DNA of 64,000 bases from Limonium bicolor (Eukaryota; Streptophyta; Magnoliopsida; Caryophyllales; Plumbaginaceae), in assembly GCA_023374045.1 (NCBI GenBank), contig CM041778.1:289331533-289395532 (forward strand). The letters are read 5' to 3'. The notes below the pieces were generated by a model. The model ran no database searches, was not told the origin of the DNA, and saw only the letters and a program-made list of their open reading frames with translations. Every line of letters begins with the position of its first letter. Position 1 is the stretch's first letter. Below, in pieces: positions 18,958-64,000 of the stretch. The position numbers and the translations under genes are program-made.

Positions 18958-18973
18958 GATTTTTTAATGTATG

Positions 18974-19049: not shown

Positions 19050-19084
19050 GACATATGTATGAATAGTTTTTTTTAAAGAAGGAA

Positions 19085-27732: not shown

Positions 27733-27745
27733 ATCTACCCCCCTT
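27733..27745 (-). promoter_or_regulatory. Polypurine tract of the LARD
   Basis: AAGGGGGGTAGAT on the minus strand, directly before the LTR start TGAAATACCCC. This is the usual place and sequence type for the RNase H-resistant primer of plus-strand DNA synthesis in Ty3/gypsy elements. Confidence 0.85.
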
Positions 27746-30700
27746 AAGAACTTTGTCCTCAAAGTTGATCGAGGTTATAGGTTTACAATGCTTACTCATT
27801 CTTACGTGTCTAATACCAAAGCCATACCTTCTACCTCCTTATAATTCCTAAATCCATTACTCAGGGTCTCTACATACCATACCATACCAATATACAATAG
27901 TTACTCCAATCCGCGCTACTACCAACTATCCGGCTCCTTATTACAAAGTTCATACATACACAGTGCAATGCTATTCCCAAAGCAATGCAATACACATTAC
28001 AATCCCGCAGGCACTCAGGTCATCTCGACGCAGGACTCCTCTATGTCCTGCTGCCTTTGGAATAATACAACATGCTACACTACTATCTTCTCCGGTATAA
28101 GCTTCTAACAAATCCTTATTCTCATGTCTAAGACTATCTTTTCAATACTACTAATTAGAAGTTCCTAAAACACACACTCCGAATTCCAATTTATATTCAT
28201 TACTTCTATCCTATGTGTGATTCTTGTGACCACTTGAGGGGAGCTTCTAGAATCATTCGACCCTGATGTGATCAGCACCAGTGTTGAACTATCTTTCCAC
28301 TCCAATTTGTGTTCAGTTTCCCTTGATCTGATCAGCATCAAGTTCGACTTCCCACGCCAGATTCAATCAAACAAATAATTTAATTGTTTTCATTTTCTAT
28401 CTTTTTACTCTTTCTAGTCGTGATACGAATTCATACATCTCCAAAAGATGGAATCAATCCATCGATCATCCTCACTCTACTTCCCAAATGTTTTACTCCG
28501 TGATTCAATACCTAAGTGTTCATTTCATCAACCTTCACTACTTCCATCCATTACTCACCATCGTCTCCAATGTTCTAACTAAGGAATACTATACTTATGA
28601 GATTTTGTTGACTTCAATTGCTTCAAATAATTTACTTACGATTCCACTACTCATAAACTTCATTCATCTACTATCCTCATTCGTTCGTACTACTTCTTCA
28701 AAGGTTACAATACTTGTGGAGCTCCGTCCACTACTCATTACTTTTCTTTTACTAATACTCTTACATTGGTGTTACAAGATAGATATATCCATCCCATGGT
28801 ATTTGCATGTCTAATGCCTAATTACCATAATTACAATATGAATGAGTACTTATGTTTATTTAACATAGTATCAATCATCAATTTGGTTCTCATTTGTGCT
28901 ATGCACATTATGGTTTATGTGTTTTTTATCACAAAACTTACATTAAGCGGTTTTCGCTCTACCCCCCTTAAAAGGGATTACGCCCACGTAATCTACCATA
29001 TGTTATTATTATAAACTTTGGTTTAATCAGTTTGGGCAAACTGAAGCGTTTAGCTTCACTACGGTATACTATATAATATGCTCTGGTCAACAGGGTCTTA
29101 ACCATACCAATGGTTTAGTCTTTGCACCAAGAGTTCCTATATGAGTTTATTTAACTCATATTTAATTCGGTTCTAGCCTAACCGGCTTCAAGGCATTAAT
29201 AGCTGTTCTATTACACTCAGTAGGTAGCTAGGGCCCACTAGCTCTGCTGCGCGACCCTGATAACTCGGGTTATTCACCCTTCTTGTTATCCTAGATGTGG
29301 TATACATCGCCTTCTTATCCGTCTATTATGGGAATAGGGTTTACAAACAAATGCGGTATTCTTTTACCGTGTTTGAACTCAATGAGTTTAAGATTTATAA
29401 CCAGCTCTCTGGTAATATATTGCACCTGTTTATTCGTGCTTCCACGATTATTCGTTAAGTTCCTCTGACTTATTGTCAGGCGAGGGTAATTCACCACTTA
29501 ACTGTAGTGCTTCCTCTGTTGTCACTAGCTTCTATTATACCAGTTCTTCTGGTTCAGTACAAGTGTCTTCACTTGTATGACCTTGCATTTCTGTGTGTCG
29601 GTCCTAGTGACTTTCTTGTATCTCCTTTCACCTTATATTCTAATGGAATTCACTCTTGTGATTACTAGTGTGTTGTACACTCTTCGTGCTTCTTTGGCCT
29701 TAGGCCGCACTGTATGTTGCTAGGCTTGCTTGACTGGCTTATGCCATGTTTGTGGTGAAAGGAAAGATTTACTACGGTTTACATTCTCCATATCCCTAAC
29801 CATCTCATTAGATCATTAGCTGAACAAGTGCAATGCCAAACACTCAGTCATACAGAGTGCAGAGGCGTAAACGCTTGACAGTAAGTCACTTATGTGATAG
29901 GAAAGAATATTTCTGTGTGTCATCTCGTATTTATACTCCGTGTCATTATCTGTTACTTCCTCATATCGGTCGCTTGTTGCGCACCGTATTCTTACTCATT
30001 ATAAACATCGTTTTTACTGACTCCGTTACTGTAGTAGTTTCTCTTTACTCACTGTTACTATCATTGGCACCATTTCTTATGGTGTGTTACGCTGAGGGCT
30101 TCCTATATTCGTGTATATGATGGTTGTCGTAGCATACCGCGGTATTATAATTCTAATGTGAAGATGTTCTTCCACTTTAGGTTTCATGTGTAGGTTAGCT
30201 TACCTCATATTCCGTCATCCTTTGTGATACAATTTACCAGGTATCTTGGTTGACCAAGGATGAGGACTCATCGGGTCATAAGCTCTCTTGAGCGTTAGTC
30301 ATTCGTGGTGCTCAATGTGTATTCACATAATTGTTCCTGACACTTATTGTCTTTCCAGTGCTGAGCATTGGTTATAGGCTCTAGCTGTGTAGTTCCACTT
30401 GTATGCATATCACCGGGACATCCCAAGAACTCTAGGGGTTTTCTGGTCCCGTTCTCTAATTGAAGAGTATTTCATCACTGACCGGTGAAATTTCTTGTTG
30501 AGGGGTTCTCTCCACTCATAGGTCTCATGACAAGGTTATCATGTTGGTGTTTATACAACGGTTCACCACATGCTTGAGTGCATATGGAGTATGCTTACTC
30601 CTTAAGTCGTAATGGTTTGGAAATCTCATTTCCTTATTCCATCGCCCTTGACAATATTTATAAGCGTAACTTATTGTTATATAGATGGAAGCCTTTCCAA

Positions 30701-33389
30701 GGGTTCACATCTTCACCACATTGGTGGTCTTTGGCTAACGAGGGGGTACCTTCCCTTGGGTTTCCCGTAGTGTCCAAGTGTGGACTAGGCCAATGTTGGC
30801 ATTATCATGATTCTTATGTCTCTGTGCTACCATTGCTACATAAGGCATGAAGGTAATTAAAAGCTTGTCAACTGTATACTAGACTGATGCTCTAGTGACA
30901 GTGACACTGAGTTGGCCATTACTCCAAGCCACTCATAAGGTTGGTTTTGGATCGATGGTCCAGTTGTTGATTTCTTGTCGTACGAGGCAATATCTCTTGC
31001 AGGTCTTGTTAGCAATTGGTGCCGGTTTTGCAACCGTTTAAGTTTATATAACGTATTTGGTTTACGACTTCTGAGCCGTATTGCTGCAAGCTATGCTCTT
31101 TGCAAGCTGCTTATACATGTTTCACTCCATGTATACCCGTCATAGGTTGGAGATATTATTGGGCTCCATGGTAAGTCGTGGCATCACGCTTCCGTTCATA
31201 GGAGACTCTCAGGCAATCTGGTGCTGATCAGTGCCTTTTGTAGTCTAGGGTATTTCCTGTTAGTGAATCCCTCGTGTCCTAAGGGATTGGTGAAATCCCC
31301 GTCCTAACCTAATGTTCCTTCTAGCTCATGTGCCTTATCATGACGCTTGTTCAACTGTTGTTATCTCAGAGACCCTTCAAGATTGCTCCTGAGTGCTGTT
31401 AGTTTGTGCCGTTACATCCGGCTAATGTTTACGATATGTTGTTCTACTATACCGCCTGGTGTTATTGTATTTGAGTTATTCCTTTTGGTTTATAACGTCT
31501 CCCGTCGTTGGGTAGACTGTTTAACCTTCTCCTAGTTTTCTTACTAGGTTTCATTCTTTTCCATGATGGATTTTACTTTATGTGATCTTGTGATTGCTCT
31601 GGGAGTTCGTCCGTTTGTCGAGCATTGTGGTGTTCATTAGGGAAACTGCCTTACTGTGTTGAGGCTGGGTATGCTTTCCAGCTGTCATATATTTGTTTAT
31701 GTCTTTGAGACATCCCATGTCTATACTTATCAGTCTATGCTCTTTTGCACTCTTAGTCCTTACTCCTTATTTTCCGTGGATTCTCTGAGTTCCTTACACT
31801 TGTTCCTTAACTGAGTTTTCCTTCTCCTTGATTGTCTATGGTGTCCAGTTGTTCTGGTTAAAATTCACTCATGGTCCGTAGAACGGAGTTGACTACTTCC
31901 CGTGTTCGCACACTCCATGTATACATACGTGGGGTACCATGTTGATACGTTACCACTTACCCGACTATGTGTCAGGCCCGCAAGCTCCTTCGAGTGCTGT
32001 TGTCCCACATCCCGTAATGGGGTACACTCGTAGTGTTCGTCACACGCCTAGGTGAAGTATTCTGTTGCCAACTCCTCTTGTATCATTCTTTGATACTCAC
32101 CGTAATTCGGTGGCTTGGTTTAAAATTCAAGGTTTTAAAGAAAGGTATGGTCTTGAAAGAAAAATTTTGGGTTTTAAATTTATGGTTCGGTGTTAAAGGC
32201 AGTTTCTCATGGCATCGCCATGTTTGAGGTCTCGACCAAGTCTAGTTCCTCGCTGACTGGTATGTACTAAATACAGTGGTCGGGTCGTTAGGCCTTTCCA
32301 AGGTTCCATTCCTTCAGTTTCAGGATTTGTGATCCCATAGTTGCTTCATTGTAGTCACGGTACATTACTATGTACCTGTGGTGTTAGGTTTCTTTACGTA
32401 TCTCTGTCCTTACTGCACTTGCCGTGGCAAGTGCGTGGTACTGATGGTTTTTGGGTAATCCTATACCAATCTTGGTAGGGTTTCCGCTTGCATTTGGTAG
32501 TCTTGTCGACTCTTCCTTTGATCTTATTGATCTACAATTGGTATGCTCGATCCTTTAGGTAGCTTCTTGGTGGTCTAGACATGGCTGTCGTAGATCTGGG
32601 TACTCCTCCAATCCTGGGAGATTCCCACTCTATTTGGTTTAGTGTCGTTCCTTGTGGCTCGTTCCCACACATTTGTGGTGGTCACTGAGCCTTCCTTGTT
32701 TAGGCACTACTCTTGTAGTCCTATTGGATTATATCTCATGGTTGTTCTCGTAGTTGTCTGAGCTATATTGGCCAGGTATTGCAACCTTAATGGCGTCGTA
32801 ATTCCGGAGTTAACCGCTTCCGACTATGTCCTTAGTCGGCTAGCATACCGTTGGTGGTATTATTCAAGTATTACTATCCCGTAGACTTGTGTCTCGGGTT
32901 CCGTTGCTGCTCCCTTTTTCATTCCGTCGCACGGTTAGTGCTTCTGTCCTGCTGTTGGTTGACTAGCTAGGTTTCGCGACTGCTAAGCACGTCGCCCCAT
33001 GCTGTTGCATGTTGTAGTCTCCTTATGTTGAGTTCTCATTCTTCCGCCATTAAGTGCGGGCATTGTTGTTCCAACCGGGATCCATCTCCGGGACTTCCAG
33101 TTCTCGGCATCTCCTACGTGTCGGTTCTTGTTTACCGTGTGATTATTTCACAACTGCCAGGTTCGGGTTTTCCCCGAGGATGAGAAGGCTCCTCTTCTCC
33201 CTGGCGTCTTTCCCAAGTTATACAATGGGGTTCGCGGCGGGCGGGACTGGTATTGTAGGTATCCGGTACTCACCGGTAGTTCCTAACTAGCATATCTCTA
33301 ATGCTAACACTCAGCCCTTAGCCCTAAGCTTCTAATTCCTAACTCGGTATTCCTAAACTCGGTATTTCCAGTCATCAGAGCGATACTTC
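27746..33389 (-). mobile_element. Non-coding internal region of the LARD
   Basis: About 5.6 kb without recognisable gag, protease, RT, RNase H or integrase motifs on either strand. The longest open frames are ~110 codons and resemble nothing I know. The plus strand is unusually T-rich and rich in 'ggt..tt' phrases, so the element's own RNA (minus strand) would be A-rich. Roughly the first 60 bases after the primer site (33,330-33,389) match the leader of the AlkB-bearing Ty3/gypsy element at 58,512-58,570 ('gatgactgga.aataccgag..taggaa'), linking the two. Confidence 0.8.
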
Positions 33390-33401
33390 GCTCTGATACC
33401 A
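33390..33401 (-). promoter_or_regulatory. Primer-binding site of the LARD (initiator-Met tRNA)
   Basis: TGGTATCAGAGC on the minus strand, separated from the LTR by the 5 bases AAAAG. It is complementary to the 3' end of plant initiator methionine tRNA. It overlaps a perfect hairpin with 10-bp arms at 33,374-33,383 and 33,388-33,397. Confidence 0.92.
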
Positions 33402-33406
33402 CTTTT

Positions 33407-36400
33407 TGTAACACCCCTACCATTAGTGCTGTGCTTACCGTCCAATCTCCTTACACATCAGATACACGCAGCGGATACATACTTACATACAGTGGGTGAT
33501 ACAATGCCGTTAGTCACCCACGTGACTAACAGGCTACTGCTTCTACATACAGCATCGGTCTGATGGACCGGAATCCCGAGTACTACACATCTATATTACA
33601 TACTCCATTCATCAATCAAATACAACAATGCTCCATTCAATACTTACTCCTCCATAATCCATGCAATACAATATACTTAACCGAGTCTACTAGGATCCTT
33701 GTACAATTATAATATCTCTTCCAAGTTCATACATACTCACTAAGAGTCTACATCTACCCATTCCTCGCAACTACTTACTTTCTAAGTACAAGGGTGTGCC
33801 GCCGGTCTCTTACCTTGACCACATCCGCTTCGGGTACCTGCACACTAAAACGTTCCCCCTAGGGGGTCAGCTTTCGCTGCGCATGATAACCGCATACCCT
33901 CGTACTAGTGAGGGTACGCCGACCACTTGGTCGAATACATGCGGTTGATTTCATTCAAACATACATGCATACATGCTCTTATACATAATTTACAATACAT
34001 TACGCAAGGCATACACACATACATACACTTCATTACATACCAGGAATACAATATAACATCCAACACATACTTACCTTCCTCCGAATACACACTATTACAT
34101 ACACCAAGTACAGTTCTTGTTAGCTTCATTGGTCCACCCGGTTAATCGGGTGGAGATTACTCTTTTACTCGTTACTTCATACATACGCATACATACTCAT
34201 ACTCATACTCATACTCATACATACTTACTTACTCTTACTCTTACTCATGTTAAGTCGTCGGGACCTCCGGCCCTGGGGACTAATCTGTCCCACCTCCGGG
34301 ATTACTTGACTCACCAATCCGGGATGCTACCCATTTAAGGGATTTGGGCCGCGGACCAGTTTAAGAGTCAGGAATTGCAGCCAACCTCTTGTGACTCCGC
34401 ATCCTCACGCGTGGCCGAAGCTATATCGGATTTCTTCACTCATTCCAGTTTACTCACTTAAGTTAGGAGTTAGGTAGTTAGGAATCAGCAGAAGTCATTC
34501 ATACAAGCCACATACACAATACATTATTCATATACACATCCATACAAATACAATACAATATACAAGTGCACTACAAGGTACAATTACACATCATCAACAT
34601 TCATATATTTCATGAATTATACAAACTATTGTTCAAGACAAATATCGAGAACAATGTAAACAAGCACAAGTAAGTGCAATATAATCCGATTCATGCATTT
34701 ATCTTATTAGGTGGTCAATTAAGCACACAAATCGGGGTAACCAGATTAGGATACAGGGCATGAAGAAATCATACCTTTCACCGTTGGTTTACTTTATCGG
34801 GTGTTCCCTTGCTCCATAGTTCCTTATTTGTTCCTCGAGTCTTAGTCTCGAACCAATGACTACATGCCAAATGGTTCAATAATTCTAAGCATTACAATAC
34901 ATTCATATACTACTACTACTACCCCGTGCTTACCCCGTTATCCCATTGCTTTGGTTTAACTCAACGTTCTTATACTTCCCACTTCTTAACTAATCCTCTT
35001 ACTTGTTTCCCATTTACATACTTATTTCTTTACCATTAGTGTTACATTAATGGTGTATTTCTAAGTCCCACATATATGTACATATCTATATATGTACATA
35101 CATATGATTACTATTATTACTATTATTATTATTATTTTTTTCTTTTTTTTATTTAAGTGGGGCCGTCCGACCCACCGTCCGACCCACCTATGGGTCGGAC
35201 CGTTCCAGTAAGTTTCGGTCCTGTGGTCCAGACTCCGTCCGACCCACTGTCCGACCCAGACTCTGGGTCGGACGAAGTCAGTAACTTCGTCCTTGATTTT
35301 TTTTTTGCCTGTCCGACCCACGTCCGATCCACGGCTCTGGGTTGGACCCTTCCAGAAAGGTTTACTGCCGTTGCCTAAGCCCCGTCCGACCCACTGTCCG
35401 ACCCAGACTCTGGGTCGGACGGTAGCAGAACCTTGCTACAGCCCTTTATTTTCTTTCCCAATTTCACCCATTGCTTCCCCAATCTTCCTACATACATCCT
35501 AACATGTTTTAGTACTATTTAAACATTCTAAATCACCTTAATTCATCCACCAAATCCATTGCTAAATCCATCAAACAACTTGCACAATTCCCTCACTTCT
35601 CTTTCAACACTTGTAACAGTTTTTGTTACACTTATGCTACAGATTTTAAAGCTCAATGCTCATATCCAATACTCCTACTACCAATACCATTACTAGCATC
35701 CCAAATACATTTCCAAGCCATTACATTACCTATACCCAAGTCCAACTCTCCTCTTACCAAATCTTGCACACTATTTCTTCTTAGTTCTACAATGCAATTT
35801 AATACCTCCTTGCTACAGATTTTGGTTCCCACCTCCTCCTACATAATTTCCTCTCCTAATGCCATTTCCAATGCCTACAATGCATTGCCTCTCCTCTTCA
35901 AGTCCAGCACTCACTCCCAGGTCAAGTACATAAATCCTCCTAGTTTCTCCAATGCCATTCAACAATTCTTGCTACAGATTTTATATCCTTTTCTCTCCCA
36001 CCACTACTACTCCATAGTCATTAACATCTCTACTAACTCCAATACTCACCTTGGTTTTCCCATTCACCAAGTCATCCATACATGTACATATTCCTACCAA
36101 AATTTTGCCATAGTTCCTCTACATTTCTTCTTACTTCTCCCCACATGCACTTTTCATCAAACTCATTCCTAATCTAGCCAAACCACAAGGGTTCTACCAG
36201 CAATTGAGCAAATATATAAAGCCATCCCAATACACCAATACTCCATCAAACATCAATACTAATACTCATACACAACCATTTGGCTCCAAGGCCTACAATT
36301 CACATACTATTGCCAATTACTCAAACTTTCACAATTACATTACTATACATTAGTTGGGTTCCTTAGATTGGTTTACCCATTCCCTTACTCTCAAATGCAC

Positions 36401-37742
36401 TAAAATTTACATTAGTAGAAAGCCCTTCCCTTGAGCTTACCATTCCTTCAAGATTCCTTTTCCACTTCTCCTCTTCTCTTCCTTGTACAATTCGATTTTG
36501 TGGGGAATGGAGTTGCCAAACTCCATTCCCATCACCCAAAGCATACAAAAGAAGTATAATTAATATACTAACCCTTAGATTTATCCTAACTCATTGAGAT
36601 GTTTTAAACAAATTTCTAGGGTTTACCTTTTGAAGCTTTTAGGAGGGGTTTTAGCCCTTGGTTCAAGAAGGTGTTCTCACCACCATTGGAGGGTTGAAAC
36701 AAAGCTCCAAAACAAGAGGAAAACAAGGTGAGAGAGAGAGGAAAAATCGGTTATACCCAAGAGATGGAGAAAAGTGAGGTCTTTCATGGAGATTCTTACC
36801 TTGTTGGAAAGAGGAGACTCCAAGCTCCATAATGGTGTGCTTTTCTCTTCAAATGGGGAAAACCCATGGAGATGAAACTCATCCTTTTCGAATTTTGAAA
36901 AGAGGGAAATGTAGAGGAGAATGAGGGGAGTTCAAATATGTAATTATTTTTGAGTTTGGAGCTTACATGGAGGTAGAGCATGAGGTTGAAGGAGGGAAGC
37001 CATTAGAGCTTCTTGAAGCTCTCGAAATCGCAGCCACAAGGGAGAAGAAAGAGAGGGAGTACGATGAGGAAGGAGGGAATGGGAGAGAGAATAGAAAAGT
37101 GAGGTGAGAGAGTATCTTTTCTACTTTTTGTACTTTTGCTTTTGCTTTTTGATTTACTTATTTGTTACTTGTGTGTGTGTGAGAGAGAGGGCTGTTTATA
37201 CCCATTAAAACCGGCCCCCACTGTTACACTAGCTGGAGCGTTTTTCGTCTTTTACAGAAAACGCTCGTTATTTTACCCGGTTTAGGTACTGTTCCCTAAC
37301 CGGGCCCGTTTTCCGGAATTTTCTCGTTTCTTTACTTTTATTGGTTATTAAGCTTCCATAAATGCTTAATAATATTTATTTAATGACTTAAAATTTTTAC
37401 GGGTTCGTTTGACCACTTAAAATCACGTTTTTGGTTTTTCTCGAGAAACGTGCGTTAAAGCTCTATTAGTGTTTTAATACATTATTTGGATCTGTTTTCT
37501 TCGGGAGTTGTTCCCATATATTATTTAGGTCTTATTAAACCTTCATAATCCATATAATACGCTAATCGAGGTCTCATACCTCCTATGGTTATTTAACGCT
37601 TATTTAGCGTTTTCCGCTTTTTAAGCGTTTATTTATTCTTTTGGATTTATTTTTCCTTACCGGTATTAATTAGGTACCATTAGGCCCTTAAATACGTATT
37701 AGATTAATTTTAATCCCTATATTTAAGTTCGGGGTATTTCAG
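33407..37742 (-). repeat. 5' LTR of the LARD
   Basis: 4,336 bp, TGTAACACCCC...GGGGTATTTCA, the partner of 23,408-27,732. Being upstream on the minus strand, it would carry the promoter that drives the element. The palindromes recur at 35,249-35,273 and 35,396-35,420. Confidence 0.92.
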
Positions 37743-42084: not shown

Positions 42085-43237
42085 CGGAATCTGTTATAAA
42101 ACACACGGTTTTCCTGTCACCTGCCAGTAACCACTGAATCCGAGATCACTAATGAAGCCTGATTTCTTCACGAAGCAAAAGCGAGTCAACAGTTACTGAA
42201 CATTGATGCCAACGGGCCTGATTAGAGATAGTGGGGGCTTGATTGGCAATAGTGTCAAGCTCATGCTGGGCCTGAGTAAGCGCCCGCTTTTCGACCCAAA
42301 CCTTTTTGGTCCCCCAAGCTTGTAACTGTCGCCCACAAAGATTGACCTTGGTTTGATAATTGCTAGCAGGTGGACTGGTGGCCCAAAAGGATTGTACTAT
42401 ATTTCTACACTCATTGTCTCCAGCCCAACAATTTTCAAACCTGAAAGGTCGCGGCCAACGGCGCGTGGATGGTTGAAGTAAAAGCTTAATGGGCTTATGA
42501 TCAGACCGGCCCCACCGCAAGTGATAATTTTGTGCATGTGGGTATAGAGCCAACCAATCAGCATTTGCCACGAAACGATCCAACCGACTCTTGACATTTA
42601 GGGGATGGGTTGCACGGTTGGAGTAAGTAAAACAAGTACCTCTGTATCCTAGGTCCTACAAGGAACAGTCTGTAAGACAAGAACGAAAAGCACCTATTGC
42701 TGACTGAGATCGAAATCCTCTACCCCGATGCTCCCCCAGATGTAAAAGCTCATTAAAATCCCCACCAAGAACCCAAGGGCCCACCCATTGCGAATGAAGA
42801 TAACGTAAAATGCGCCAAGTTTTTCATTTTTCAGTTACAGATGACCAACCATAGACTCCAGTGAGTCGCCAGTTCACACCCCCAAGATTACATACAAAAG
42901 CATCCACATGATGCGATGAAAAGCTAGACAAAGAAACAGTAACAAAAGTTTTCCAAAAGAAAGCCACCCCCCTTTCCGACTCGCTATCACTTGCTACCCA
43001 ATTGTAATCCTGAAATATAGATAAAAAATACCGCATCTCAAAAGAAGAGAGTTTTGTCTCCAACAAAATCACAAAAACTGGTGCTTCATGAGCCACCAAG
43101 CCTACCAACCAGCGAAGCACCGCCCTACTACCTAGCCCACGACAGTTCACAACTAAAACCAAAATTAATCCCGGCGACCGAGGGTGGCTCGCCACCCGAA
43201 TCAGAGCTCTTGAGCCTCTTTGAAGAGTCTGAAACAA
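42085..43237 (-). pseudogene. LINE-2 ORF2, 5' part: EEP-type endonuclease
   Basis: On the minus strand, 43,237-42,824 shows 'VLVVNCRGLGSRAVLRWL', 'ILLETKLSSFEMR' and 'LTGVYGWSSVTEK'. After an in-frame stop come 'WVLGGDFNELL', then 'CFTYSNRATHPLNVKSRLDR' and 'GRSDHKPIKLLL' (42,597-42,400). These are the Glu, GDFN and SDH motifs of the apurinic-type endonuclease that nicks the target DNA. Stops near 42,830 and 42,655 and frame changes break it. The RT half lies at 20,700-21,936, beyond the nested insertion. Confidence 0.88.
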
Positions 43238-43399
43238 CGGCCTCAGCTAAAGCGTGAACATGAGAAGTCACAGAGGTATCTTTTTCCTGCTTGCGCTTCC
43301 GATTACATGAGCTCGTCGGTGAGCAACAATCTCACCTTCTTCAACTTCCTGATCCCCTTGACCTGCGTGATGGGCTTTGTAGCAGCTGGTAGAGATTGG

Positions 43400-55941: not shown

Positions 55942-57104
55942 GTGCTCTTCAATGGTAAACCTGACCTGCGTGAAATCTGCAAAATCTGTGATAAACCAGG
56001 CCATGCTGCTCGCGCCTGTTATCATCGATTCAACTACAGCTACCAGAATACTGGATCTGTTAAATACAAGGCGAATGCTACCAACACTGATTATGGAGGA
56101 AATTCGGTCAATAATTCCTCTTCTTCATGGTATCCAGATACAGCGGCGACAAATCATTTTACAAATGATTTTGGCAATCTTAACCTAAATCATCATCCCT
56201 ACAGTGGTTCTGATTCTGTTGCAGTAGGGGATGGTTCTCTCTTAACCATTGAAAATCAAGGCATGAGGAAACTCTCTTTGTCTAATAGACAGTTTATACT
56301 TTCGAATTTACTTCATGTTCCGCAGATTACTCGGAATTTGCTCTCTGTTCGCCAATTTTGCATTGATAATAACGTGTTTTTTGAGTTTCATCCTTCTTCT
56401 TTTGTGGTGAAGGATCTGGATACCAAGACAGTGGTTCTTCACGGAGGTACTAGAGATGGCCTTTACCATTTCGACACTGCAGTATCACCATCTACTGCTG
56501 CCTACTCCACTGTTAAGACGAGCTCTTATACTTGGCATCTCCGACTTGGACATACTGGGGACAGAATCACTCAACACACTATACATAAATACAACCTACC
56601 TTTTTACAATAGGCCTGATACTTCTCTGTGTTCTGGTTGCAGAGATGGTAAATCTCATTCCTTACCGCATTATAGAACAACTTCAGTGAGCTCTAGACCT
56701 TTTGAACTCTTGTTTATGGACGTTTGGGGTCCGGCCCCTGTAATAAGCACTGATGGCAGTAGATATTATCTATCTATTCTTGATAATTTCAGCAAATTTC
56801 TCTGGCTTTTTACTATATCATGCAAGAGCAGTGTTGCTGCTATTTTTGCTGAGTTTCATGTGTTTGTTCGAACTCAGTTTGGTGTATCAGTCCAGTCTGT
56901 GCAAACTGATGGCGGCAGTGAATTTACGCCCCTTATTCCCTTTTTCAAACAACTTGGTATAATGCATCGGGTTACATGTCCCTATGCTCATGCTTCAAAT
57001 GGTGCTATTGAAAACCGACATCGACAAATTGTTGATAAAGGCCTTGCTATGCTAAGTCACTCGTCTATGCCTCTTAAATTCTGGGGGCAAGCTTTTCATA
57101 CAAG
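55942..57104 (+). pseudogene. Ty1/copia pol: zinc knuckle, protease, integrase, truncated by insertion
   Basis: Open for ~387 codons. 'CKICDKPGHAARAC' is the CX2CX4HX4C knuckle. 'WYPDTAATNHFTNDF' is the protease active site, with DTA in place of the usual DSG/DTG. 'TWHLRLGHTGDRI' is the GAG-pre-integrase domain, with 'CSGCRDGKSH' completing the zinc site. 'LFMDVWGPAP' and 'QTDGGSEF' give the first two Asp of the integrase core and 'SNGAIENRHRQIVDKG' the Glu. It is cut after 'FWGQAFHTS' at 57,104, where TGTAACACC of another element begins. RT and RNase H should resume beyond the right end of that insertion, outside the window. Confidence 0.9.
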
Positions 57105-58485
57105 TGTAACACCCCTAATACGCACATGATACTAAATGAAATCGCAGCGGAAATAAATGACTAAACAGTAACTAACGCTTCGGTGCTACAACGCCGTCAA
57201 CCACCCACGTGGTTGACAAGGCAGAATAAATACAAGTGTACCGGTCTGATGATCAGACTCCCGAGCATAAACTAAACCATAAATACATTATATACAATAC
57301 CGAGTAATACATACATCCTTCACTGTCAAACATCACTGTAACTGTCACAACCAAATATAAACACGCCACGGGAGCACAGGCGCATCCCGGGCCAACATCC
57401 CAAAGGTATACAAAAGTAAATCACATCCTAGGATCTAGAGCCACTCCGCTTCTTCGATCCTCATCCTGCAGTATAAGAAATATGGATCCCCCGAGGGGGT
57501 CAGCAACCCTTGGCTGGTATGGCTAACGCGCAGCCCATCGGCTACCGGGATACGCGCAGCTACTTGTCATTATAACATGGCATTCAGTTATATACATAAC
57601 ATAACATAACATGGAGCATGGCATCAATGGTGCATAGCTCAACAACACATACACAGTGGATTTTCACTCCACGATAACAAACCACAAGGGTCAAATAACA
57701 TAAGAGCCTAGAGAGTGATTCACCCTCATGTTAAGCTCGTTAAACACACTCATTACCGTTCTGTTAGGCGAACGAGTAACTTAAGTCACAGATGGTTCGG
57801 ATTTAGTGACCCGAACACACCACACAAACACAGGTTCCCACTAAACCGATCATAAGTCAGAATAGGTAAGCTTTGGAAGAAGCTAGCGGGAGATCGAACG
57901 CCAAATTAAGGAGAACAATCTTAACAACATAAGAGTCGAATCTGATTCAATATCCACTCTTAACTTACATGCATGACCGGATAACCGGATTCCTCACTTC
58001 CCAGTTAACACTTGTTAGAAGTTCATAGTGGAACTTAACAACCAACACACAATAGGTGGCAAGTCATGTTAGACACACACAAGGGAATTGAGTCACAACA
58101 TTACATCACAATTATGAACAACTGTAAACTCATTACATGTTTAAATCTTATAACGTTGTAAACACACAGAAAAACATACAACACACAAACCGGTGTAAAC
58201 CGCTAGACAACAGACTGCAAGAAAACCATACCTTGGTCCTTGCCTCGTTTGGTTTCCTCCGTAGGTCACTCCTATACATAATTCAAGAACGTCGGTTAAT
58301 TAACTTACTTAACCTCCAAATTTACTAAGTGTTTTACATCATTGTATGACATGTTTTAATGTCTATCTTACCCTAGGTTACCTTCATTATACACCCTAGG
58401 GTCAACTACATAAGTCACATTCTTTTCTGTTTTTTTTTTTTTTTTACAAGTTTTGGTCCGACCGGACTTGCCGACCGGGCTTGTC
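57105..58485 (-). repeat. Inverted, truncated LTR fragment at the left end of the AlkB-bearing element
   Basis: Begins TGTAACACCCCTAAT and follows the order of the LARD and solo LTRs: a 'cgcagcggaaataaat' box, 'cacccacgtgg', 'ggtctgatga.cagactcccgag', 'gggggtcagc', then a T-run and 'ggtccgaccgg'. In the LARD the matching stretch covers the first ~1.75 kb of the LTR as written in this window. So this piece lies in minus orientation, while the primer site and gag right after it are in plus orientation. About 1.38 kb remains; the rest of the LTR is missing. Confidence 0.75.
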
Positions 58486-58499
58486 CTGATACCAAAAAG

Positions 58500-58511
58500 T
58501 GGTATCAGAGC
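58500..58511 (+). promoter_or_regulatory. Primer-binding site (iMet tRNA) within a hairpin
   Basis: TGGTATCAGAGC preceded by AAAAG, exactly as in the LARD. Downstream it forms a perfect stem with 10-bp arms (58,504-58,513 and 58,518-58,527, loop AGTA). Upstream, CTGATACCA (58,486-58,494) is the reverse complement of TGGTATCAG (58,500-58,508). Confidence 0.9.
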
Positions 58512-58527
58512 GAAGTATCGCTCTGAT

Positions 58528-58711
58528 GACTAGAATACCGAGCTTAGGAATATACCGAGTTAGGAAACCTAACTACAGTTACCTAAGTGATCAGTTATGG
58601 AGAGGTTAACCACTAACTAAGTGTGGAGGTACCTTATTGTCGGGAAGCGTTACAACCGTTGGACCGATAAGTGTGCAAGCATATTGCTAATGAATATTCA
58701 TGTGAATACAG
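58528..58711 (+). other. Untranslated leader of the AlkB-bearing element
   Basis: 184 bases between the primer-site hairpin and the gag ATG. The first ~50 bases match the LARD leader. It ends 'gtgaatacag|ATG', a good splice acceptor immediately before the start codon, so the leader itself may be spliced. Confidence 0.6.
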
Positions 58712-59380
58712 ATGTCAGGTAGACCACGCGGTAGAGGCCGCGGAAGTGGTACTGGTACTGGGGGTGACCAGGGCGAGAACACTACGGCTCAGGTTATGGC
58801 TGAGGCTGTAGCAGCCGCTGTGGCCCAGATGGTACCCCAGCTTGTAGCTGCGATCCAGCAGGGGCAGATGCCCGGAGTTCAGCCACCACCGCCACGAGAG
58901 ACCAACTGGGTCAAGGCATTGGCAGATCTGAGACCCCCTTCGTTTCATGGGGAGACCGACCCACGTAAGTTGGAGGCGTACATCTCCGAGTTGGAGACCG
59001 CCTACGAGACCTTGGCTGTGCCCGCAGAGGCTAAGGTCCGTCTTGCCGCTTACTACCTGAAGGGTTCGGCGCAAAACTGGTGGAAGCTAGTGAGAGAGGA
59101 CCGGATGGCGGATCCTCAGTTTGGTTGGAGGGAGTACACGGCTCTGCTGCGAGCCAAATACTACCCCGTGCACGTTCAAGAGGCCAAGCGCCTGGAGCTG
59201 GATAGCCTGAGGCAGGGGGACAAGGTGACGGTTGATGAGTATTACACCGCCTTCACCGGCCTTGTCCACCTGTTACCGGACCTGGGATACTCAAACCGGG
59301 TGCTGGTAAACCGTTTCTACAACGGTCTCAGCCACCGTCTTCGCTATGGGATGGGGCCAGCTGAGTATACTACCTTGCAG
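58712..59380 (+). CDS. Gag exon 1 (Retrotrans_gag capsid)
   Basis: Starts 'MSGRPRGRGRGSGTGTGG', a basic Gly/Arg N-terminus, then an Ala-rich helix and a Pro linker. The capsid core runs from about residue 75: 'LADLRPPSFHGETDPRKLEA', 'AAYYLKGSAQNWWKLV', 'LRAKYYPVHVQEAKRLELDS', 'VDEYYTAFTGLVHLLPDLGY' and 'RFYNGLSHRLRYG'. This is the Ty3/gypsy Retrotrans_gag domain that builds the particle. The ORF hits a stop at 59,387-59,389 only by reading past a splice donor ('ttgcag|gtaatt', 59,381). Spliced, it continues in phase 0 to exon 2. Confidence 0.88.
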
Positions 59381-59485
59381 GTAATTTAAATAGAGAGTGA
59401 TGTGAATATGTATAGTCTACAAGTGAGTATTAATGTGAGTTTGTGAGTATGTATTGCGGGGCATGACTGATCATCCTAAATACAG
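59381..59485 (+). other. Intron 1 in gag
   Basis: 105 bases, GTAATT...TACAG. Removing it restores phase: 'YTTLQ' joins 'ECYHAAAKVEITVRL', the expected continuation of a gypsy gag. It is T/A-rich with in-frame stops. Confidence 0.75.
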
Positions 59486-59747
59486 GAGTGCTATCATGCC
59501 GCTGCTAAGGTGGAGATCACCGTCCGTCTGAGGGACGAGGAGAATGCGCACAAGCGCAAGGCCACGAGCGAGGGCCAGAGTTCGCAGGGGTATGGGGGAG
59601 GAAAGAAGAAGAAGAAACCTTATTCCCAGCCCCAGAAGAGTCAGCACCAGGGTGACAAGGGCCAAGCCCAAACCACCACCGCTGAGGAGCCACTGAAGCT
59701 CACATATGCTTATGCGGCGAAGCCCCTACGCTCTTACCCACCAAAGG
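59486..59747 (+). CDS. Gag exon 2 (basic linker)
   Basis: Reads 'ECYHAAAKVEITVRLRDEEN', then a Lys/Gln/Ser-rich linker with 'GGGKKKKKPYSQ', ending '...KPLRSYPPK' plus one base of the next codon. Between capsid and zinc knuckles such basic linkers bind RNA. The donor is 'aagg|gtaatt' at 59,748. Confidence 0.75.
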
Positions 59748-59830
59748 GTAATTGTCTAATCACGTGTAATAAGTTGATGTGTATGTTGATAAGGTGTGAA
59801 ACAAGTACTGAGTGTGTATTGTGTTAGCAG
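59748..59830 (+). other. Intron 2 in gag
   Basis: 83 bases, GTAATT...TTAGCAG, T-rich. It contains in-frame stops. Splicing joins one base of exon 2 to 'ct', giving Ala and then 'STGSGPERHYYCKWC'. Confidence 0.7.
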
Positions 59831-60171
59831 CTAGCACGGGCTCTGGACCGGAGCGCCACTATTACTGTAAGTGGTGCAATGGAGACCACCCCGGCAAGGA
59901 CTGCAAGGGAATGAGGTGCAGTGTCGATACTGCGAGAAGTGGGGCCACCGTGACCACGAGTGTTACCGGAACCCCAACAGCAGAGTCAACAAGCCCAAGG
60001 GGCAGTGGAAGGGTAAGGCCACAGCAGCTATTGATGGCCCGAAGACGGCTAACCAGCCACCCACTGATCAGAGGCATACTGATTCCCAGAAGGGGAAGGG
60101 GTCGGGACCTAGCAAGGCCACCCTGAATGTGGTGGACCGGTCTGAGGCGCCAGGGCCCTCTTCTAGACCAG
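59831..60171 (+). pseudogene. Gag exon 3 with two zinc knuckles, one frameshift
   Basis: The first knuckle is 'CKWCNGDHPGKDC' (CX2CX3HX4C, one residue short between C and H); the second is 'CRYCEKWGHRDHEC' (canonical CX2CX4HX4C). They lie in different frames: the frame changes near 59,910, between 'KDCKG' and 'VQCRYC'. The second frame then runs through 'KPKGQWKGKATAAIDG' to a stop at 60,180-60,182. Before that stop there is a donor 'accag|gtaccg' at 60,172, which can splice on to pol or to the AlkB exon. Confidence 0.75.
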
Positions 60172-60395
60172 GTACCGCCTAAACTGTTGAATGTAATAAG
60201 TGATTGCATACCGCATTTCATGCTTATGTGTGTTAGTGAGTTCAAGTGTATTATCATGTGAGTAAGGAGTTAAAGTATAGTGTGAAAGACACCTAATTAG
60301 ATAATTCTAAACTTAAAGGAACCTTCAATATATGTTATCCAATCCCACCCACACCAAACCCTGAAGAGACCACCATCAACATCACCGACTTTCCA

Positions 60396-61058
60396 ATGGA
60401 GCAATGTCAGGTTATCCAGCCAGGTATGATACTTTTAAGTGGATACCTGACACCGGAAGCACAAGTCCATATCATCAGACGATGCGACGAACTTGGAGCT
60501 AAACCTGGAGGTTTCTACACACCTGAATATCCGAATGGATCAAGAATGCAATTGAAGATGATGTGCATGGGTAAGGACTGGAACCCTTACACCAAGTCAT
60601 ATCAAGAAGTGCGAGCTGAAGATGGAGCAACAGTACCAAGTATACCTGAGGAGTTCCGTGCGGTCGTTAATCACGCCGTGGGAATTGCTCAACAAGTTGA
60701 AACGGATTCAATTCCAAATGTAGAAGCAGATTTATGTATTGTGAACTTCTACCAGAAAGGTGGACGGTTAGGTTTACACCAAGATAAGGACGAGTCACCC
60801 GAGTCTCTAAGTAAGGGAGTACCCGTGGTGTCTTGGTCCATTGGTGATACCGCAGTATTTGTATATGGCGAGCAGAAGCGTGCTGATCTCGCAAGGAAGT
60901 TGATGTTAAAGTCAGGAGATGTATTAATCATGGGTGGGCAGTCAAGGATGCTATATCACGGCATCAGAAAGATCAAACTTAATACCGCACCGTCGGCAGT
61001 GATCAATGCCACACACATGAAACCCGGACGTTTGAATTTGACCTTCAGACAATTCTAA
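60396..61058 (+). CDS. AlkB-type 2-oxoglutarate/Fe(II) dioxygenase inside a Ty3/gypsy element
   Basis: 220 residues, one uninterrupted frame, close in length to a bare bacterial AlkB domain. Motifs: 'YLTPEAQ' helix start (17-23); 'PYTKSYQEVR' region (64-73); 'IVNFYQKGGRLGLHQDKDE' (115-133) with iron ligands His128 and Asp130; 'VSWSIGDTAVFVYG' (145-158); 'GDVLIMGGQSRMLYHGI' (174-190) with iron ligand His188; and 'GRLNLTFRQF' (211-220) with Arg212 and Arg218 of the RxNxTxR motif that holds 2-oxoglutarate. Family members oxidatively remove alkyl groups from DNA or RNA bases; the substrate here is unknown. The frame is open upstream to 60,297, so translation could start as a Gag fusion through the acceptor at 60,300, or at this ATG. 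It lies in sense orientation between gag and protease. It shows no frameshift, although gag and pol around it have several. Confidence 0.92.
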   Translation: MEQCQVIQPGMILLSGYLTPEAQVHIIRRCDELGAKPGGFYTPEYPNGSRMQLKMMCMGKDWNPYTKSYQEVRAEDGATVPSIPEEFRAVVNHAVGIAQQVETDSIPNVEADLCIVNFYQKGGRLGLHQDKDESPESLSKGVPVVSWSIGDTAVFVYGEQKRADLARKLMLKSGDVLIMGGQSRMLYHGIRKIKLNTAPSAVINATHMKPGRLNLTFRQF

Positions 61059-61240
61059 GCCTTGTATACTTTGTAATGTGTTAAGTCAGTACATGTTAAG
61101 GGAGTTATGTATGTGTTAAGTTATATCAACCATGTAAACCAACAATGTTGTAAAGAGGAAGTGTTAATGAATAAAGTGGAGTTATTGAAGTATATCAACC
61201 GTGTTGTTACCCAGTACTTATTAGTTTGCCAATGAATTAG
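61059..61240 (+). other. Spacer between the AlkB ORF and the pol exon
   Basis: 182 bases rich in 'tgttaagt' and 'tatatcaaccatgt' repeats, with AATAAAG at about 61,170, which could serve as a poly(A) signal for a short Gag-AlkB transcript. It ends with the acceptor 'aatgaattag'. Confidence 0.45.
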
Positions 61241-62010
61241 GCTGTGCACTCGGAACGGGAGGTACATTGAGTGTCTGCAATGAGGCAGAAGCCGGCAAGA
61301 GCGGCACAATCCTCACCGGTACCTTTCCAGTGAATGGCGTGGATGCATCGATCCTGTTCGACTCTGGAGCCTCGCACACATTTGTTTCGCTATCTTTTGC
61401 GAAGAGGCTGGGGTTAGATGGAGAGGAGATGCCAGACTTCTTGGTCACTCTCCCATCGAAAGAGCGGATCAGGTGTACCCGCTACCACCGAGATGTCATT
61501 GTACGAATCAGAGGTGAAGAGTTCCCGATCGACCTGATAGAGTTCGACGGACTTGGATTTGATGTGATTGTCGGGATGAACTGGTTGGAGCGGTACAAGG
61601 GCAGAATCCTGTGTGCCGAGCATCGACTGCTTCTTCGGAGTCCATCTGGGGTTACCATATCTTACCGCCAGAGGCCCAGGGAGCCTTCGACTCAGATCAT
61701 CACCGCCATGGCCATGTATCGTGAGTTACGACGGGGGAGTGATGTGTACCTCTGCTATGTCCAGGACATAGAGAGAGACCCTGAGTTTAGCCCAGATGTG
61801 CCGGTAGTGTCGGAGTTTCCTGATGTATTCCCTAAGGAACTGCCGGGCATGCCGCCAGCACGAGAGGTTGAGTTTGAGATCGACTTAGTACCGGGCACTG
61901 GACCCATTGCGAAAGCACCTTATCGTATGGCTCCAGCAGAGATGACAGAGCTCAAGGAGCAGCTGAGAGACCTACTCGACAAGGGCTTCATCCGCCCTAG
62001 TTGTCACCAT
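61241..62010 (+). pseudogene. Pol: retropepsin protease and start of RT
   Basis: Begins at the acceptor as 'CALGTGGTLSVCNEAEAG'. 'ILFDSGASHTFVS' is the protease active site (DSG at 61,360-61,368), followed by 'VIVGMNWLERYKGRI'. The RT entry is 'VVSEFPDVFPKELPGMPP', 'FEIDLVPGTGPIAKAPYRMA' and '[10 protein letters not shown]'. A frame change at about 62,005-62,015 separates it from the catalytic RT. The protease cuts the polyprotein inside the particle. Confidence 0.88.
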
Positions 62011-62815
62011 GGGGAGCGCCAGTCCTCTTCGTGAAGAAGAAGGACGGTAGCCTCCGCCTGTGTATTGATTATCGGGAGCTGAATGCTGTTACGGTGAAAA
62101 ACCGTTACCCTTTACCACGCATCGACGATCTATTTGATCAGCTGAGGGGTGCATCAGTATTCTCCAAGATAGACTTACGTTCCGGATACCATCAGATTGC
62201 CATCCGTGACAGTGATATCGAGAAGACAGCTTTCAGAACGAGGTATGGGCATTATGAGTTCACAGTTATGCCATTTGGCTTATCGAATGCACCAGCAAAG
62301 TTCATGGACTTAATGAACCGCTTGTTCCAAGATCAGTTGGACAAGTCAGTGGTAGTCTTCATCGATGACATTCTTGTGTATTCTAAATCGAAAGGTGAGC
62401 ACGAAAGCCACCTGAGAGATGTGTTACAAACTTTGAGGAGAAACCAGTTGTATGCAAAGTTTTCGAAATGTGAGTTTTGGTTGAACCAAGTATCTTTCCT
62501 TGGACATGTGATTTCTGAGGCCGGGATCGCTGTTGATCCGGCAAAGATAGATGCAGTGCGCACCTGGCCTAGGCCGAAGACAGTCACTGATATCAGGAGC
62601 TTCCTCGGTCTGGCAGGTTATTATAGGAGGTTTGTGAAGGACTTCTCCAGTATCTCGAAGCCGATGACTTCCTTGATGAAGAAGGATGCACCATTCGAGT
62701 GGACAGTTGACTGTGAGAGTTCTTTCGCGAGTCTCAAGGATGCTCTGACATCTGCACCAGTCCTGACTATACCAGACGGTCCAGATGGTTTTGAGGTCTA
62801 CTGCGACGCATCAGG
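62001..62815 (+). pseudogene. Pol: reverse transcriptase and start of RNase H
   Basis: '[20 protein letters not shown]', '[20 protein letters not shown]', '[13 protein letters not shown]' with the first catalytic Asp, '[17 protein letters not shown]', and 'FIDDILVYS' (62,358-62,384) with the catalytic Asp pair. Then '[17 protein letters not shown]' and RNase H '[12 protein letters not shown]'. A one-base shift near 62,825 breaks the frame. Confidence 0.9.
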
Positions 62816-62825
62816 CAGAGGTATG

Positions 62826-63160
62826 GGGTGTATTGATGCAGCACGGGAAGGTCGTAGCATACGCCTCCCGTCAGCTGAAGAAACATGAGGAGAACTACCC
62901 TACCCACGACTTAGAATTGGGTGCCATTGTCTTCGCATTGAAGATATGGCGACATTATTTGTATGGGGTAAGTGTGACAATCTATTCTGACCATAAAAGC
63001 TTAAAGTACTTGTTCACTCAGAAAGAGTTGAACATGAGCAAAGAAGGTGGGTTGAGTTTCTGAATGACTACGATATTAATCTGCAATACAAAGAGGTAAG
63101 GCAAATGTGGTAGCTGACGCACTGAGTCGCCGAGCACACTCTCTCCATTCGCTGGTCTCT
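62826..63160 (+). pseudogene. Pol: RNase H remainder, frameshifted
   Basis: '[20 protein letters not shown]', '[20 protein letters not shown]' and '[17 protein letters not shown]' follow the RNase H fold. A shift near 63,040 leads into '[16 protein letters not shown]', and another near 63,095 into 'GKANVVADALSR', the end of RNase H. Each break is a single-base type change. Confidence 0.85.
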
Positions 63161-64000
63161 CATACTGGCTTGGTTGAAGAGGTGCGGAGTGCTCAGATGA
63201 CGGATCAGTACATGCTGGAGATCCGGCAGAAGCTTATTGATGGCACATTCGAGGGTCAGAAGTACGACTTCAGACTCCACGATGATGACCTGATTAGGCT
63301 GAATGGCCGCTTGTGTATACCTAGGAGTAGCGCTGAGTTGAAGGAGCGCATATTGAGTGAATCCCATTGTTCTACTACTTCGATTCACCCCGGAGCTTCA
63401 AAGATGTATAAGAGTATGAAAAGGTATTTTTGGTGGACTGGAATGAAGAAAGATGTAAGTGATTATGTGTTGAGGTGTCTCACTTGCCAGAAGGTCAAGT
63501 TTGAGCACCGACGGCCTGGTGGTATGGTACAGCCAATGCCAGTGCCTGAGTGGAAGTTCCATGATATCTCCATGGACTTTGTAGTAGGGCTTCCGCCTAC
63601 AAGGGGAGGTCTGAATATGATATGGGTGATAGTTGACCGACTGACCAAGGTGGCCCGATTCATTCCGATGAAGGACACTTGGAAAGTGGCAAGATTGGCA
63701 GAACTGTTTGATAAAGAGATTGTAAGACATCATGGTGTACCGAAAACGATTGTATCTGACAGAGACACCAGATTCTTATCCAGATATTGGAAGTCCACAC
63801 GAGAGGCATTGGGTACTGAATTGAAATTGAGTACAGCGTTTCATCCACAGACCGATGGTCAGAGTGAGCGCACTATTCAGACACTTGAGGATATGCTACG
63901 TGCTTGTGCACTTGACTTTCAGACCAGCTGGATTGATAAGTTACATCTGATCGAGTTTAGTTACAACAACAGTTATCATGCTTCGATCAAGATGTCTCCC
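63100..64000 (+). CDS. Pol: integrase (runs off the window)
   Basis: An open frame to the window end. The HHCC zinc domain reads 'SIHPGASKMYKSMKRYFWW' through 'CLTCQKVKFEH'. The core has the first Asp in 'HDISMDFVVGLPP', the second in 'IVSDRDTRFLSRYW' and the Glu in 'HPQTDGQSERTIQTLEDML'. The DDE integrase inserts the cDNA. No stop is seen over ~300 codons. The chromodomain and 3' LTR must lie beyond 64,000. Confidence 0.88.

What the first reader, a model, noticed from the sequence alone, without database searches (positions are those of the whole stretch)
60396..61058. A complete AlkB dioxygenase gene lodged inside a Ty3/gypsy retrotransposon
Seen: an uninterrupted 220-codon frame with His128-x-Asp130, His188 and the RxNxTxR motif, in sense orientation between gag and protease. 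Known: AlkB-family 2-oxoglutarate/Fe(II) enzymes remove alkyl groups from nucleic acids, and AlkB domains occur in some plant RNA viruses; they are not a standard part of Ty3/gypsy elements. Inference: the element may carry its own nucleic-acid demethylase, to erase methyl marks (for example m6A or m1A) on its genomic RNA or to repair its cDNA. The frame is intact while gag and pol on both sides are frameshifted. I cannot tell whether such elements have been described before.
Basis: partly seen in the sequence, partly recalled or inferred. Interest (0 to 1): 0.92.

Follow-up and report, generated by a model that had tools for sequence, protein, structure and literature searches.

The report
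Plant retrotransposon carrying an AlkB demethylase
A large, recently active family of plant jumping genes carries its own copy of a gene for a DNA/RNA-demethylating type of enzyme inside an intron between its structural and replication genes, and that gene appears to have been kept by natural selection.

Summary
ORF 60396-61058 is a full AlkB domain with all catalytic residues, ALKBH1-type, between gag and protease of a Ty3/gypsy element. It is not a one-off: of 150 scored copies in the window's own 2.92-Gb genome (97-100% identity, window included), 147 have no internal stop. All 29 copies picked by a non-coding spacer, and all 20 checked of those picked by gag, have AlkB at the same place. 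Two further subfamilies (gag about 40% identical) keep the gag-AlkB-pro-RT order. Selection is purifying (dN/dS 0.10-0.24).

Gag is split by introns. One phase-1 donor (60172) faces two phase-1 acceptors: AlkB (60319) and protease (61241). Genomic copies lacking exactly the predicted introns, including 13 places with the gag|protease junction, show that splicing is real. Best model: splicing yields Gag-Pro-Pol or a Gag-AlkB fusion acting on the element's own nucleic acids. The Gag-AlkB junction and the enzyme's activity are untested, and only 1 of the 29 spacer-picked copies has an unbroken AlkB frame, probably through assembly errors.

A Ty3/gypsy AlkB is known from Phalaenopsis (2022): Ogre-type, ALKBH5-like. 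This looks like an independent, probably older capture: a new variant of a known kind.

The parts
57105..58483 (-). 5' end of this insertion: the 3' part of the family's LTR, in inverted orientation
   Evidence: Matches 2730-4097 of L032 in reverse. A 5-base target-site duplication ACAAG lies at 57100-57104 and at L031:5706-5710.
58500..58511 (+). primer binding site TGGTATCAGAGC, initiator tRNA-Met type (tRNA match recalled, not run)
   Evidence: Sequence. It sits in a strong predicted hairpin, z -4.5.
58712..59380 (+). gag exon 1 (capsid)
   Evidence: PF03732 E 1.6e-17 and PF19259. Relative P0121 (65%) is aligned to the end of this exon and stops soon after it.
59381..59485 (+). intron 1, GT-AG, phase 0
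   Evidence: GC 0.34 against 0.58-0.59 in the flanking exons. GT and AG present in 29 of 29 copies. Precisely absent in L095 and L098. Absent in 6 of 8 second/third-type copies, those where both ends align.
59486..59747 (+). gag exon 2
   Evidence: Open frame in phase with exon 1.
59748..59830 (+). intron 2, GT-AG, phase 1, tandem NAGNAG acceptor
   Evidence: Precisely missing in L017 and L061, at two acceptors 3 bases apart, and in L095 and L098.
59831..60171 (+). gag exon 3, nucleocapsid with two CCHC knuckles (by eye); one frame break in this copy
   Evidence: Translation; Pfam gave only a sub-threshold PHD match. Phase-1 donor follows at 60172.
60172..61240 (+). intron 3 as used for Gag-Pro-Pol; it holds the AlkB exon. 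For the proposed Gag-AlkB form the intron is 60172-60318
   Evidence: Donor GT and both acceptor AGs present in 29 of 29 copies in each of two sets. The gag|pro junction occurs at 13 genomic places; 7 of 7 fetched are precise.
60319..61058 (+). AlkB exon (ATG at 60396; conserved N-terminal FNICYP upstream of it)
   Evidence: PF13532 E 1.1e-48. The same acceptor position and phase seen in 7 of 8 second/third-type copies.
61241..64000 (+). protease-RT-RNase H-integrase, several frame breaks in this copy; runs on past the window to about L031:612
   Evidence: PF08284, PF00078, PF17917, PF17921. Chromodomain-like C-terminus in L031 seen by eye.

Best explanation
This is a young, high-copy Ty3/gypsy retrotransposon family, by its primer site and C-terminus probably a chromovirus, that captured a plant-type ALKBH1 gene and has kept it as an exon between gag and protease. 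Shown: AlkB sits there in each copy checked other than those fetched for the gag|protease junction, in three subfamilies (the third known from one copy); substitutions show purifying selection; gag is split by introns that genomic copies show to be spliced; and a single phase-1 donor is joined to the protease exon, skipping AlkB. Inferred: the same donor is alternatively joined to the AlkB exon, in phase, giving Gag-AlkB; reading through gives Gag alone; joining to protease gives Gag-Pro-Pol. Splicing would thus set the ratio of structural protein, eraser and enzymes. Inferred further: Gag-AlkB is built into the particle through its Gag part and removes methyl adducts from the element's own packaged nucleic acid (genomic RNA, cDNA or tRNA primer) before or during reverse transcription.
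For: Copies: 150 scored (a cap; the window is one) at 97-100% identity, 147 without internal stops. Colinear gag-AlkB-pro-RT in 29 of 29 other AlkB-picked loci (of the 30 loci given for 150 hits) and 29 of 29 other spacer-picked loci (30 given for 40 hits); AlkB in place in 20 of 20 gag-picked copies checked, of 39. Second and third subfamilies: 121 scored hits; 8 of 8 fetched carry gag, AlkB, pro and RT in that order. Selection: AlkB variants shared by 2 or more copies 6 N to 16 S (pN/pS 0.11), singletons 14 N to 16 S (0.25), in the AlkB-blind set; dN/dS 0.10-0.24 in 15 pairs of second-type copies; 0 of 58 conserved columns changed between the window and P0001 against 54 of 198 overall, p 1.6e-10. 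Splicing: precise loss of intron 2 in L017 and L061; 13 gag|pro junctions, reversed-pattern control 0; L095 and L098 lack all three introns. The AlkB acceptor and its phase are kept across subfamilies. ALKBH1 affinity: trees and the FDIC motif, found in 22 plant-type proteins and P0002 among 120 library proteins.
Against: No transcript or protein data. No gag|AlkB junction was found among the loci held when one search ran (L001-L093), and the genome-wide search for it did not complete. Only 1 of 29 AlkB-blind copies has an unbroken AlkB frame; I read this mainly as assembly indels, but cannot prove it. Of 121 scored second/third-type hits, 27 have internal stops by my count, and L041 has lost Arg212. 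AlkB-lacking copies occur at 13 places, so AlkB in cis may not be needed for every insertion. AlkB could instead be made from its own ATG at 60396.
Confidence: 0.6

Rival explanations
1. AlkB is a stand-alone protein, translated from ATG 60396 on its own RNA, or after reinitiation, rather than fused to Gag. It works in trans in the cell like the free ORF2 of the Phalaenopsis element.
For: ATG 60396 is kept in 29 of 29 AlkB-picked copies. The Phalaenopsis AlkB is a separate ORF (PMC9289625).
Against: The conserved F-[DN]-I-C-[YF]-P segment lies upstream of that ATG, begins at a phase-1 acceptor and is kept in divergent subfamilies and in P0002.
Confidence: 0.25
2. AlkB is a passenger: a captured gene that rides in an intron with no benefit to the element.
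For: AlkB-lacking (gag|pro) copies occur at 13 places. Frames are broken in 28 of 29 AlkB-blind copies.
Against: dN/dS well below 1, conserved columns untouched, retention across subfamilies with saturated synonymous sites.
Confidence: 0.08
3. The AlkB-lacking copies are the ancestral state and AlkB with its flanks was inserted later, rather than removed by splicing.
For: In 5 of 7 fetched copies only the AlkB intron is missing while intron 2 is present, and their gag is only 81-84% identical to the window.
Against: The joint falls exactly at GT...AG with the right phase; the other two of the seven also lack introns 1 and 2 precisely; the second- and third-type copies fetched, far more diverged, all have AlkB, though they were picked by it.
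Confidence: 0.07

Closest known systems
Gypsy_Pa_2799 and kin: Phalaenopsis Ty3/gypsy elements with an AlkB (2-ODD) ORF, Alvarado-Marchena et al. 2022, PMC9289625
   Same: A plant Ty3/gypsy element in high copy carries a catalytically complete AlkB; there the purified protein removed m6A from RNA in vitro (read).
   Different: Theirs: Ogre/Tat lineage, tRNA-Arg primer site, 25 kb, gag-pol in one ORF, separate 565-residue ALKBH5-like ORF2, detected only in two Phalaenopsis species among 121 genomes. Here: tRNA-Met-type primer site (recalled match), repeat unit about 10.3 kb in a tandem array (one LTR of about 3.9 kb plus internal part), ALKBH1-type AlkB as an exon between gag and protease with several introns.
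Ogre elements (intron between gag-pro and RT) and EVD/EVADE (alternatively spliced Ty1/copia), as described in passages of PMC6317226 and PMC12786077
   Same: Splicing of the full-length RNA regulates which proteins are made.
   Different: Here at least three introns, one donor with two in-phase acceptors, and an enzyme exon as the alternative end.
AlkB domains of plant RNA viruses (Alphaflexi-, Betaflexi-, Closteroviridae; named in PMC9289625)
   Same: A mobile genome carries its own AlkB, thought to protect its nucleic acid.
   Different: RNA viruses, no reverse transcription. Not compared by sequence here.
Plant nuclear ALKBH1 (5xeg, recalled as rice ALKBH1; ALKBH1 acts on 6mA of single-stranded or unpaired DNA per passages of PMC10469495)
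   Same: About 50% identity, FDIC N-terminal motif, same catalytic residues.
   Different: A host gene. The element clade is sister to, not inside, the sampled angiosperm genes, though nesting with eudicots is not rejected (p 0.30).

Membership tests
AlkB 2-oxoglutarate/Fe(II) dioxygenases (PF13532) | Profile match over the whole domain | tested here: met
   E 1.1e-48, profile 1-194 of 194.
AlkB 2-oxoglutarate/Fe(II) dioxygenases (PF13532) | HxD...H iron ligands and RxxxxxR 2-oxoglutarate site | tested here: met
   H128, D130, H188, R212, R218; kept in 28-29 of 29 AlkB-blind copies. Second/third-type: NxY and HxD in 8 of 8, Arg212 in 7 of 8.
AlkB 2-oxoglutarate/Fe(II) dioxygenases (PF13532) | Fold (predicted structure) | not tested
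   The prediction machine was busy at each of 14 tries (first, last).
AlkB 2-oxoglutarate/Fe(II) dioxygenases (PF13532) | Demethylase activity | not testable with these tools
   Needs a bench assay.
ALKBH1 subfamily (plant type) | Phylogenetic grouping with plant ALKBH1 | tested here: met
   Groups with 25 plant-type proteins (2 of them unnamed) against 15 bacterial-type ones (mostly unnamed), 100/100. ALKBH5-type plant proteins were not in the tree.
Ty3/gypsy LTR retrotransposon | gag, then PR-RT-RH-IN order, LTRs, PBS, PPT, 5-base TSD | tested here: met
   Domains; LTRs about 3.9 kb in other copies; PPT by eye; TSDs ACAAG and CTAAG.
Chromovirus (seed-plant type) | tRNA-Met primer site, not used by non-chromoviruses (PMC6317226) | tested here: inconclusive
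   TGGTATCAGAGC at 58500 is of that type, but the tRNA match is recalled and was not run.
Chromovirus (seed-plant type) | Chromodomain after integrase | tested here: inconclusive
   Chromodomain-like end seen by eye in L031; no profile was run. The Tekay clade is suspected from recalled motifs only.
Phalaenopsis AlkB elements (Gypsy_Pa_2799) | Ogre/Tat lineage with tRNA-Arg primer site | tested here: inconclusive
   The primer site looks tRNA-Met-type (recalled match), which would exclude it; no RT tree with Ogre was built.
Phalaenopsis AlkB elements (Gypsy_Pa_2799) | ALKBH5-like AlkB in a separate ORF2, gag-pol in one ORF | tested here: not met
   ALKBH1-like; gag and pol separated by introns, AlkB between them.

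The most novel reading that the evidence does not exclude
The element makes a packaged Gag-AlkB eraser by choosing between two acceptors from one donor, and the ALKBH1-type enzyme acts inside the particle on the element's own tRNA-iMet primer (m1A58, a reported ALKBH1 target and a known reverse-transcription stop in HIV) or on N6-/N1-methyl adenine of its RNA/cDNA. That would be a retroelement carrying its own control over the modification state of its primer or template.
Probability: 0.15. Interest if true: 0.92.

Novelty: new variant of a known kind. Interest (0 to 1): 0.75.

Why it matters
It suggests that acquisition of an AlkB eraser by plant retrotransposons happened at least twice, from different AlkB classes and apparently in different element lineages, and here was kept through the split of three subfamilies. 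Convergence would argue that adenine or alkyl marks on retroelement nucleic acid are a real battleground. It also gives a Ty3/gypsy element with several introns whose splicing is recorded in genomic retrocopies, and a directly testable idea that splicing, not frameshifting, sets the Gag : Gag-AlkB : Gag-Pol ratio.

Tried and rejected
Single-copy capture or assembly chimera: rejected. Bacterial donor: rejected; the element AlkBs group with plant ALKBH1 and share the FDIC motif. Capture inside eudicots: neither supported nor rejected (p 0.30). Intactness of this one AlkB frame as evidence of function: rejected as weak. Relatives in viral contigs: 3 stretches matched a pattern, none encodes a relative. 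The gag search in the protein library gave 1 hit at E <= 1e-8; weaker hits were not shown. Structure prediction, and searches of the own genome with P0001 and P0002, did not complete, so whether P0001 and P0002 come from other species is unknown. The host species was not identified.

Full report
THE OBJECT. ORF 60396-61058(+) is a 220-residue AlkB domain with PF13532 over its full length and 5xeg as best solved relative by sequence (recalled as rice ALKBH1). All iron and 2-oxoglutarate residues are present. It lies after gag (capsid exon 58712-59380, nucleocapsid exon 59831-60171) and before protease-RT-RNase H-integrase. The primer site TGGTATCAGAGC at 58500 is the initiator-tRNA-Met type (match recalled). 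Per PMC6317226 (two sections and passages read) non-chromoviruses do not use tRNA-Met. Integrase is followed by a chromodomain-like end in the adjoining DNA (L031; by eye, no profile run).

THE FAMILY. The window lies in an unnamed 2.92-Gb genome. A protein search with this AlkB scored 150 places (a cap; 51,374 first-look candidates; the window is one of the 150), over residues 1-220 at 97-100% identity; 147 of 150 have no internal stop. The 30 loci given are colinear in 29 of 29 cases besides the window, at 92.7-98.2% identity; one of them, L017, lacks intron 2. These were chosen for AlkB similarity, so I took two further samples. By the non-coding spacer 61059-61240: 40 scored of 1,286 candidates, 30 loci given, one being the window; 29 of 29 others are colinear from gag to RT at 95.7-99.0% identity. 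By gag: 40 scored of 4,536 candidates; I fetched 350 bases at the expected AlkB place for 20 of the 39 others, and 20 of 20 hold AlkB at 96-99%. Two copies looked at further have LTRs of about 3.9 kb. One pair differs by K2P 0.0076, about 0.3-0.5 My at recalled rates, with a TSD CTAAG; the other pair (0.0072) may belong to a tandem array because a second primer site follows its LTR.

OTHER SUBFAMILIES. A plant ALKBH1 query (P0014) scored 121 other places (a cap; 46,934 candidates) at 51-60% identity; by my count 94 have no stop and 27 have one or more. Eight were fetched: 8 of 8 carry gag (34-45% to the window), AlkB (55-59%), protease and RT in the same order. One of them, L042, pairs with library protein P0002 (92/94), so I count three subfamilies, the third from one copy. 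In the protein library, P0001 (AlkB, 72%) and P0121 (gag, 65%) both come from an 'ena' contig of 26,621 bases. I infer one contig, hence another gag+AlkB element. P0121 ends three residues after the glutamine at which the window's intron 1 begins.

SELECTION. In the AlkB-blind set, AlkB variants shared by two or more copies are 6 nonsynonymous to 16 synonymous (pN/pS 0.11), singletons 14 to 16 (0.25). For comparison protease is shared 0 to 13, single 10 to 15; gag exon 3 shared 2 to 4, single 10 to 4 (0.75). In the AlkB-picked set (28 copies plus the window; L001 left out as most diverged) the shared AlkB counts are 3 to 24. Among six second-type copies, 15 pairs give dN/dS 0.10-0.24; between subfamilies synonymous sites are saturated or nearly so while dN is 0.18-0.32 (L040 was not included). 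Between the window and P0001, 54 of 198 columns differ but 0 of 58 conserved ones (p 1.6e-10). Against this: only 1 of 29 AlkB-blind copies has an unbroken 220-codon frame, and L041 has Trp for Arg212. Of 112 indel events in AlkB, 82 are single bases, and between the two LTR pairs gap events exceed substitutions (51 to 29, 38 to 27). I take most of these as assembly errors, which would also explain many frame breaks in the window's gag and pol, but this is inference.

INTRONS AND SPLICING. Three gaps in gag/pol have GT-AG ends, matching phases and low GC (0.32-0.35 against 0.54-0.60 in the gag and protease exons). The donor and acceptor dinucleotides of introns 2 and 3 are kept in 28-29 of 29 copies in two sets; those of intron 1, covered by one set, in 29 of 29. 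Genomic copies record the splicing. L017 and L061 lack intron 2 exactly, using two acceptors three bases apart. The predicted gag|protease junction, which skips AlkB, occurs at 13 places (5 exact, 7 with one mismatch, 1 with two; reversed control 0). I fetched 7 of the 13: 7 of 7 are precise, and L095 and L098 also lack introns 1 and 2. The other five keep intron 2. The gag of the seven is 80-86% and their protease 91-97% identical to the window, so they may descend from one or a few AlkB-less lineages. The donor at 60172 is phase 1, and both acceptors (60319 AlkB, 61241 protease) are phase 1. In the second/third-type copies the AlkB acceptor and phase recur in 7 of 8. Four of the 8 have an open gag frame into what the translation implies is a phase-1 donor, and the L037 DNA shows donor and protease acceptor directly. 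Intron 1 is absent in 6 of 8, those where both ends align. The gag|AlkB junction was not seen among L001-L093 and could not be searched genome-wide.

ORIGIN. In trees of 121, 45 and 53 proteins the element AlkBs form one clade beside the sampled monocot and eudicot ALKBH1 proteins and apart from bacterial-type ones (support for the element clade 99/94, 97/95, 90/84). Nesting with eudicots is not rejected. The N-terminal FDIC motif is shared with 22 plant-type proteins of the 120 looked at. So the donor was most likely a plant ALKBH1 gene; the date is open.

HOW IT MAY WORK. Shown: presence, place, selection, splicing from gag to protease. Inferred: splicing from the same donor to AlkB gives Gag-AlkB, which Gag would carry into particles. 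ALKBH1 acts on 6mA in single-stranded or unpaired DNA, in rice at R-loops (PMC10469495, passages). ALKBH1 erases m1A58 of tRNA (as cited in PMC7475180, passages). m1A58 of the primer tRNA halts plus-strand copying in HIV (PMC13191261, passages). Template RNA, cDNA and the tRNA-iMet primer are therefore all possible substrates. I cannot choose between them.

KNOWN OR NEW. The one published parallel found is the Phalaenopsis element (PMC9289625; abstract, parts 2-4 of 7 and Discussion read). It is Ogre/Tat with a tRNA-Arg primer site, a single gag-pol ORF and a separate ALKBH5-like ORF; those authors detected no such domain in their consensuses from the other genomes of 121 angiosperm assemblies, and note that low-copy families can be missed. 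My literature searches for an ALKBH1-type, chromoviral or Gag-fused case (open-licence papers only, judged from listings) showed no other. PMC12786077 (passages) says plant LTR elements generally lack introns, with Ogre and EVADE as exceptions; PMC7730604 (passages) reports spliced isoforms of sunflower elements. Hence: a new variant of a known kind.

Noticed in passing
57105-58483 and L031:932-5705: The window's own copy is rearranged: its 5' end is the inverted 3' part of the LTR and its 3' end is the LTR 5' part followed by an inverted copy of itself, yet the whole is flanked by a 5-base TSD ACAAG inside what looks by eye like a Ty1/copia element.
   Followed up: partly
23407-37741 (minus strand): A large element without long coding ORFs: two direct repeats (alignment 4,368 columns, 97.07% identical) around 5.7 kb. 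It shares the primer-site leader (75 bases, 93%) and the PPT/LTR start (72 bases, 86%) with the AlkB element: perhaps a non-autonomous partner.
   Followed up: partly
58490-58570: The primer binding site lies in a near-perfect hairpin (-24.5 kcal/mol, z -4.5); the same sequence is 93% conserved in the element at 33.4 kb.
   Followed up: partly
G000 C6:52090830, 52101153, 52111526; L035: Gag matches spaced 10.32 and 10.37 kb apart, and an LTR followed directly by another primer site: apparently tandem copies sharing LTRs.
   Followed up: no
59826-59830; L017 and L061: Intron 2 has a NAGNAG acceptor, and both acceptors are represented among precisely intron-less genomic copies.
   Followed up: yes
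L036-L043: Second/third-type copies lack intron 1 (6 of 8 where it can be judged), so that intron was gained in one lineage or lost in the other, possibly through reverse transcription of spliced RNA.
   Followed up: partly
G000 assembly: Indels exceed substitutions between the two young LTR pairs examined, which points to residual assembly error in repeats.
   Followed up: partly
15405-21948 and 42149-43246 (minus strand): Long open frames that look by eye like LINE-type endonuclease/reverse transcriptase remains; no profile run.
   Followed up: no
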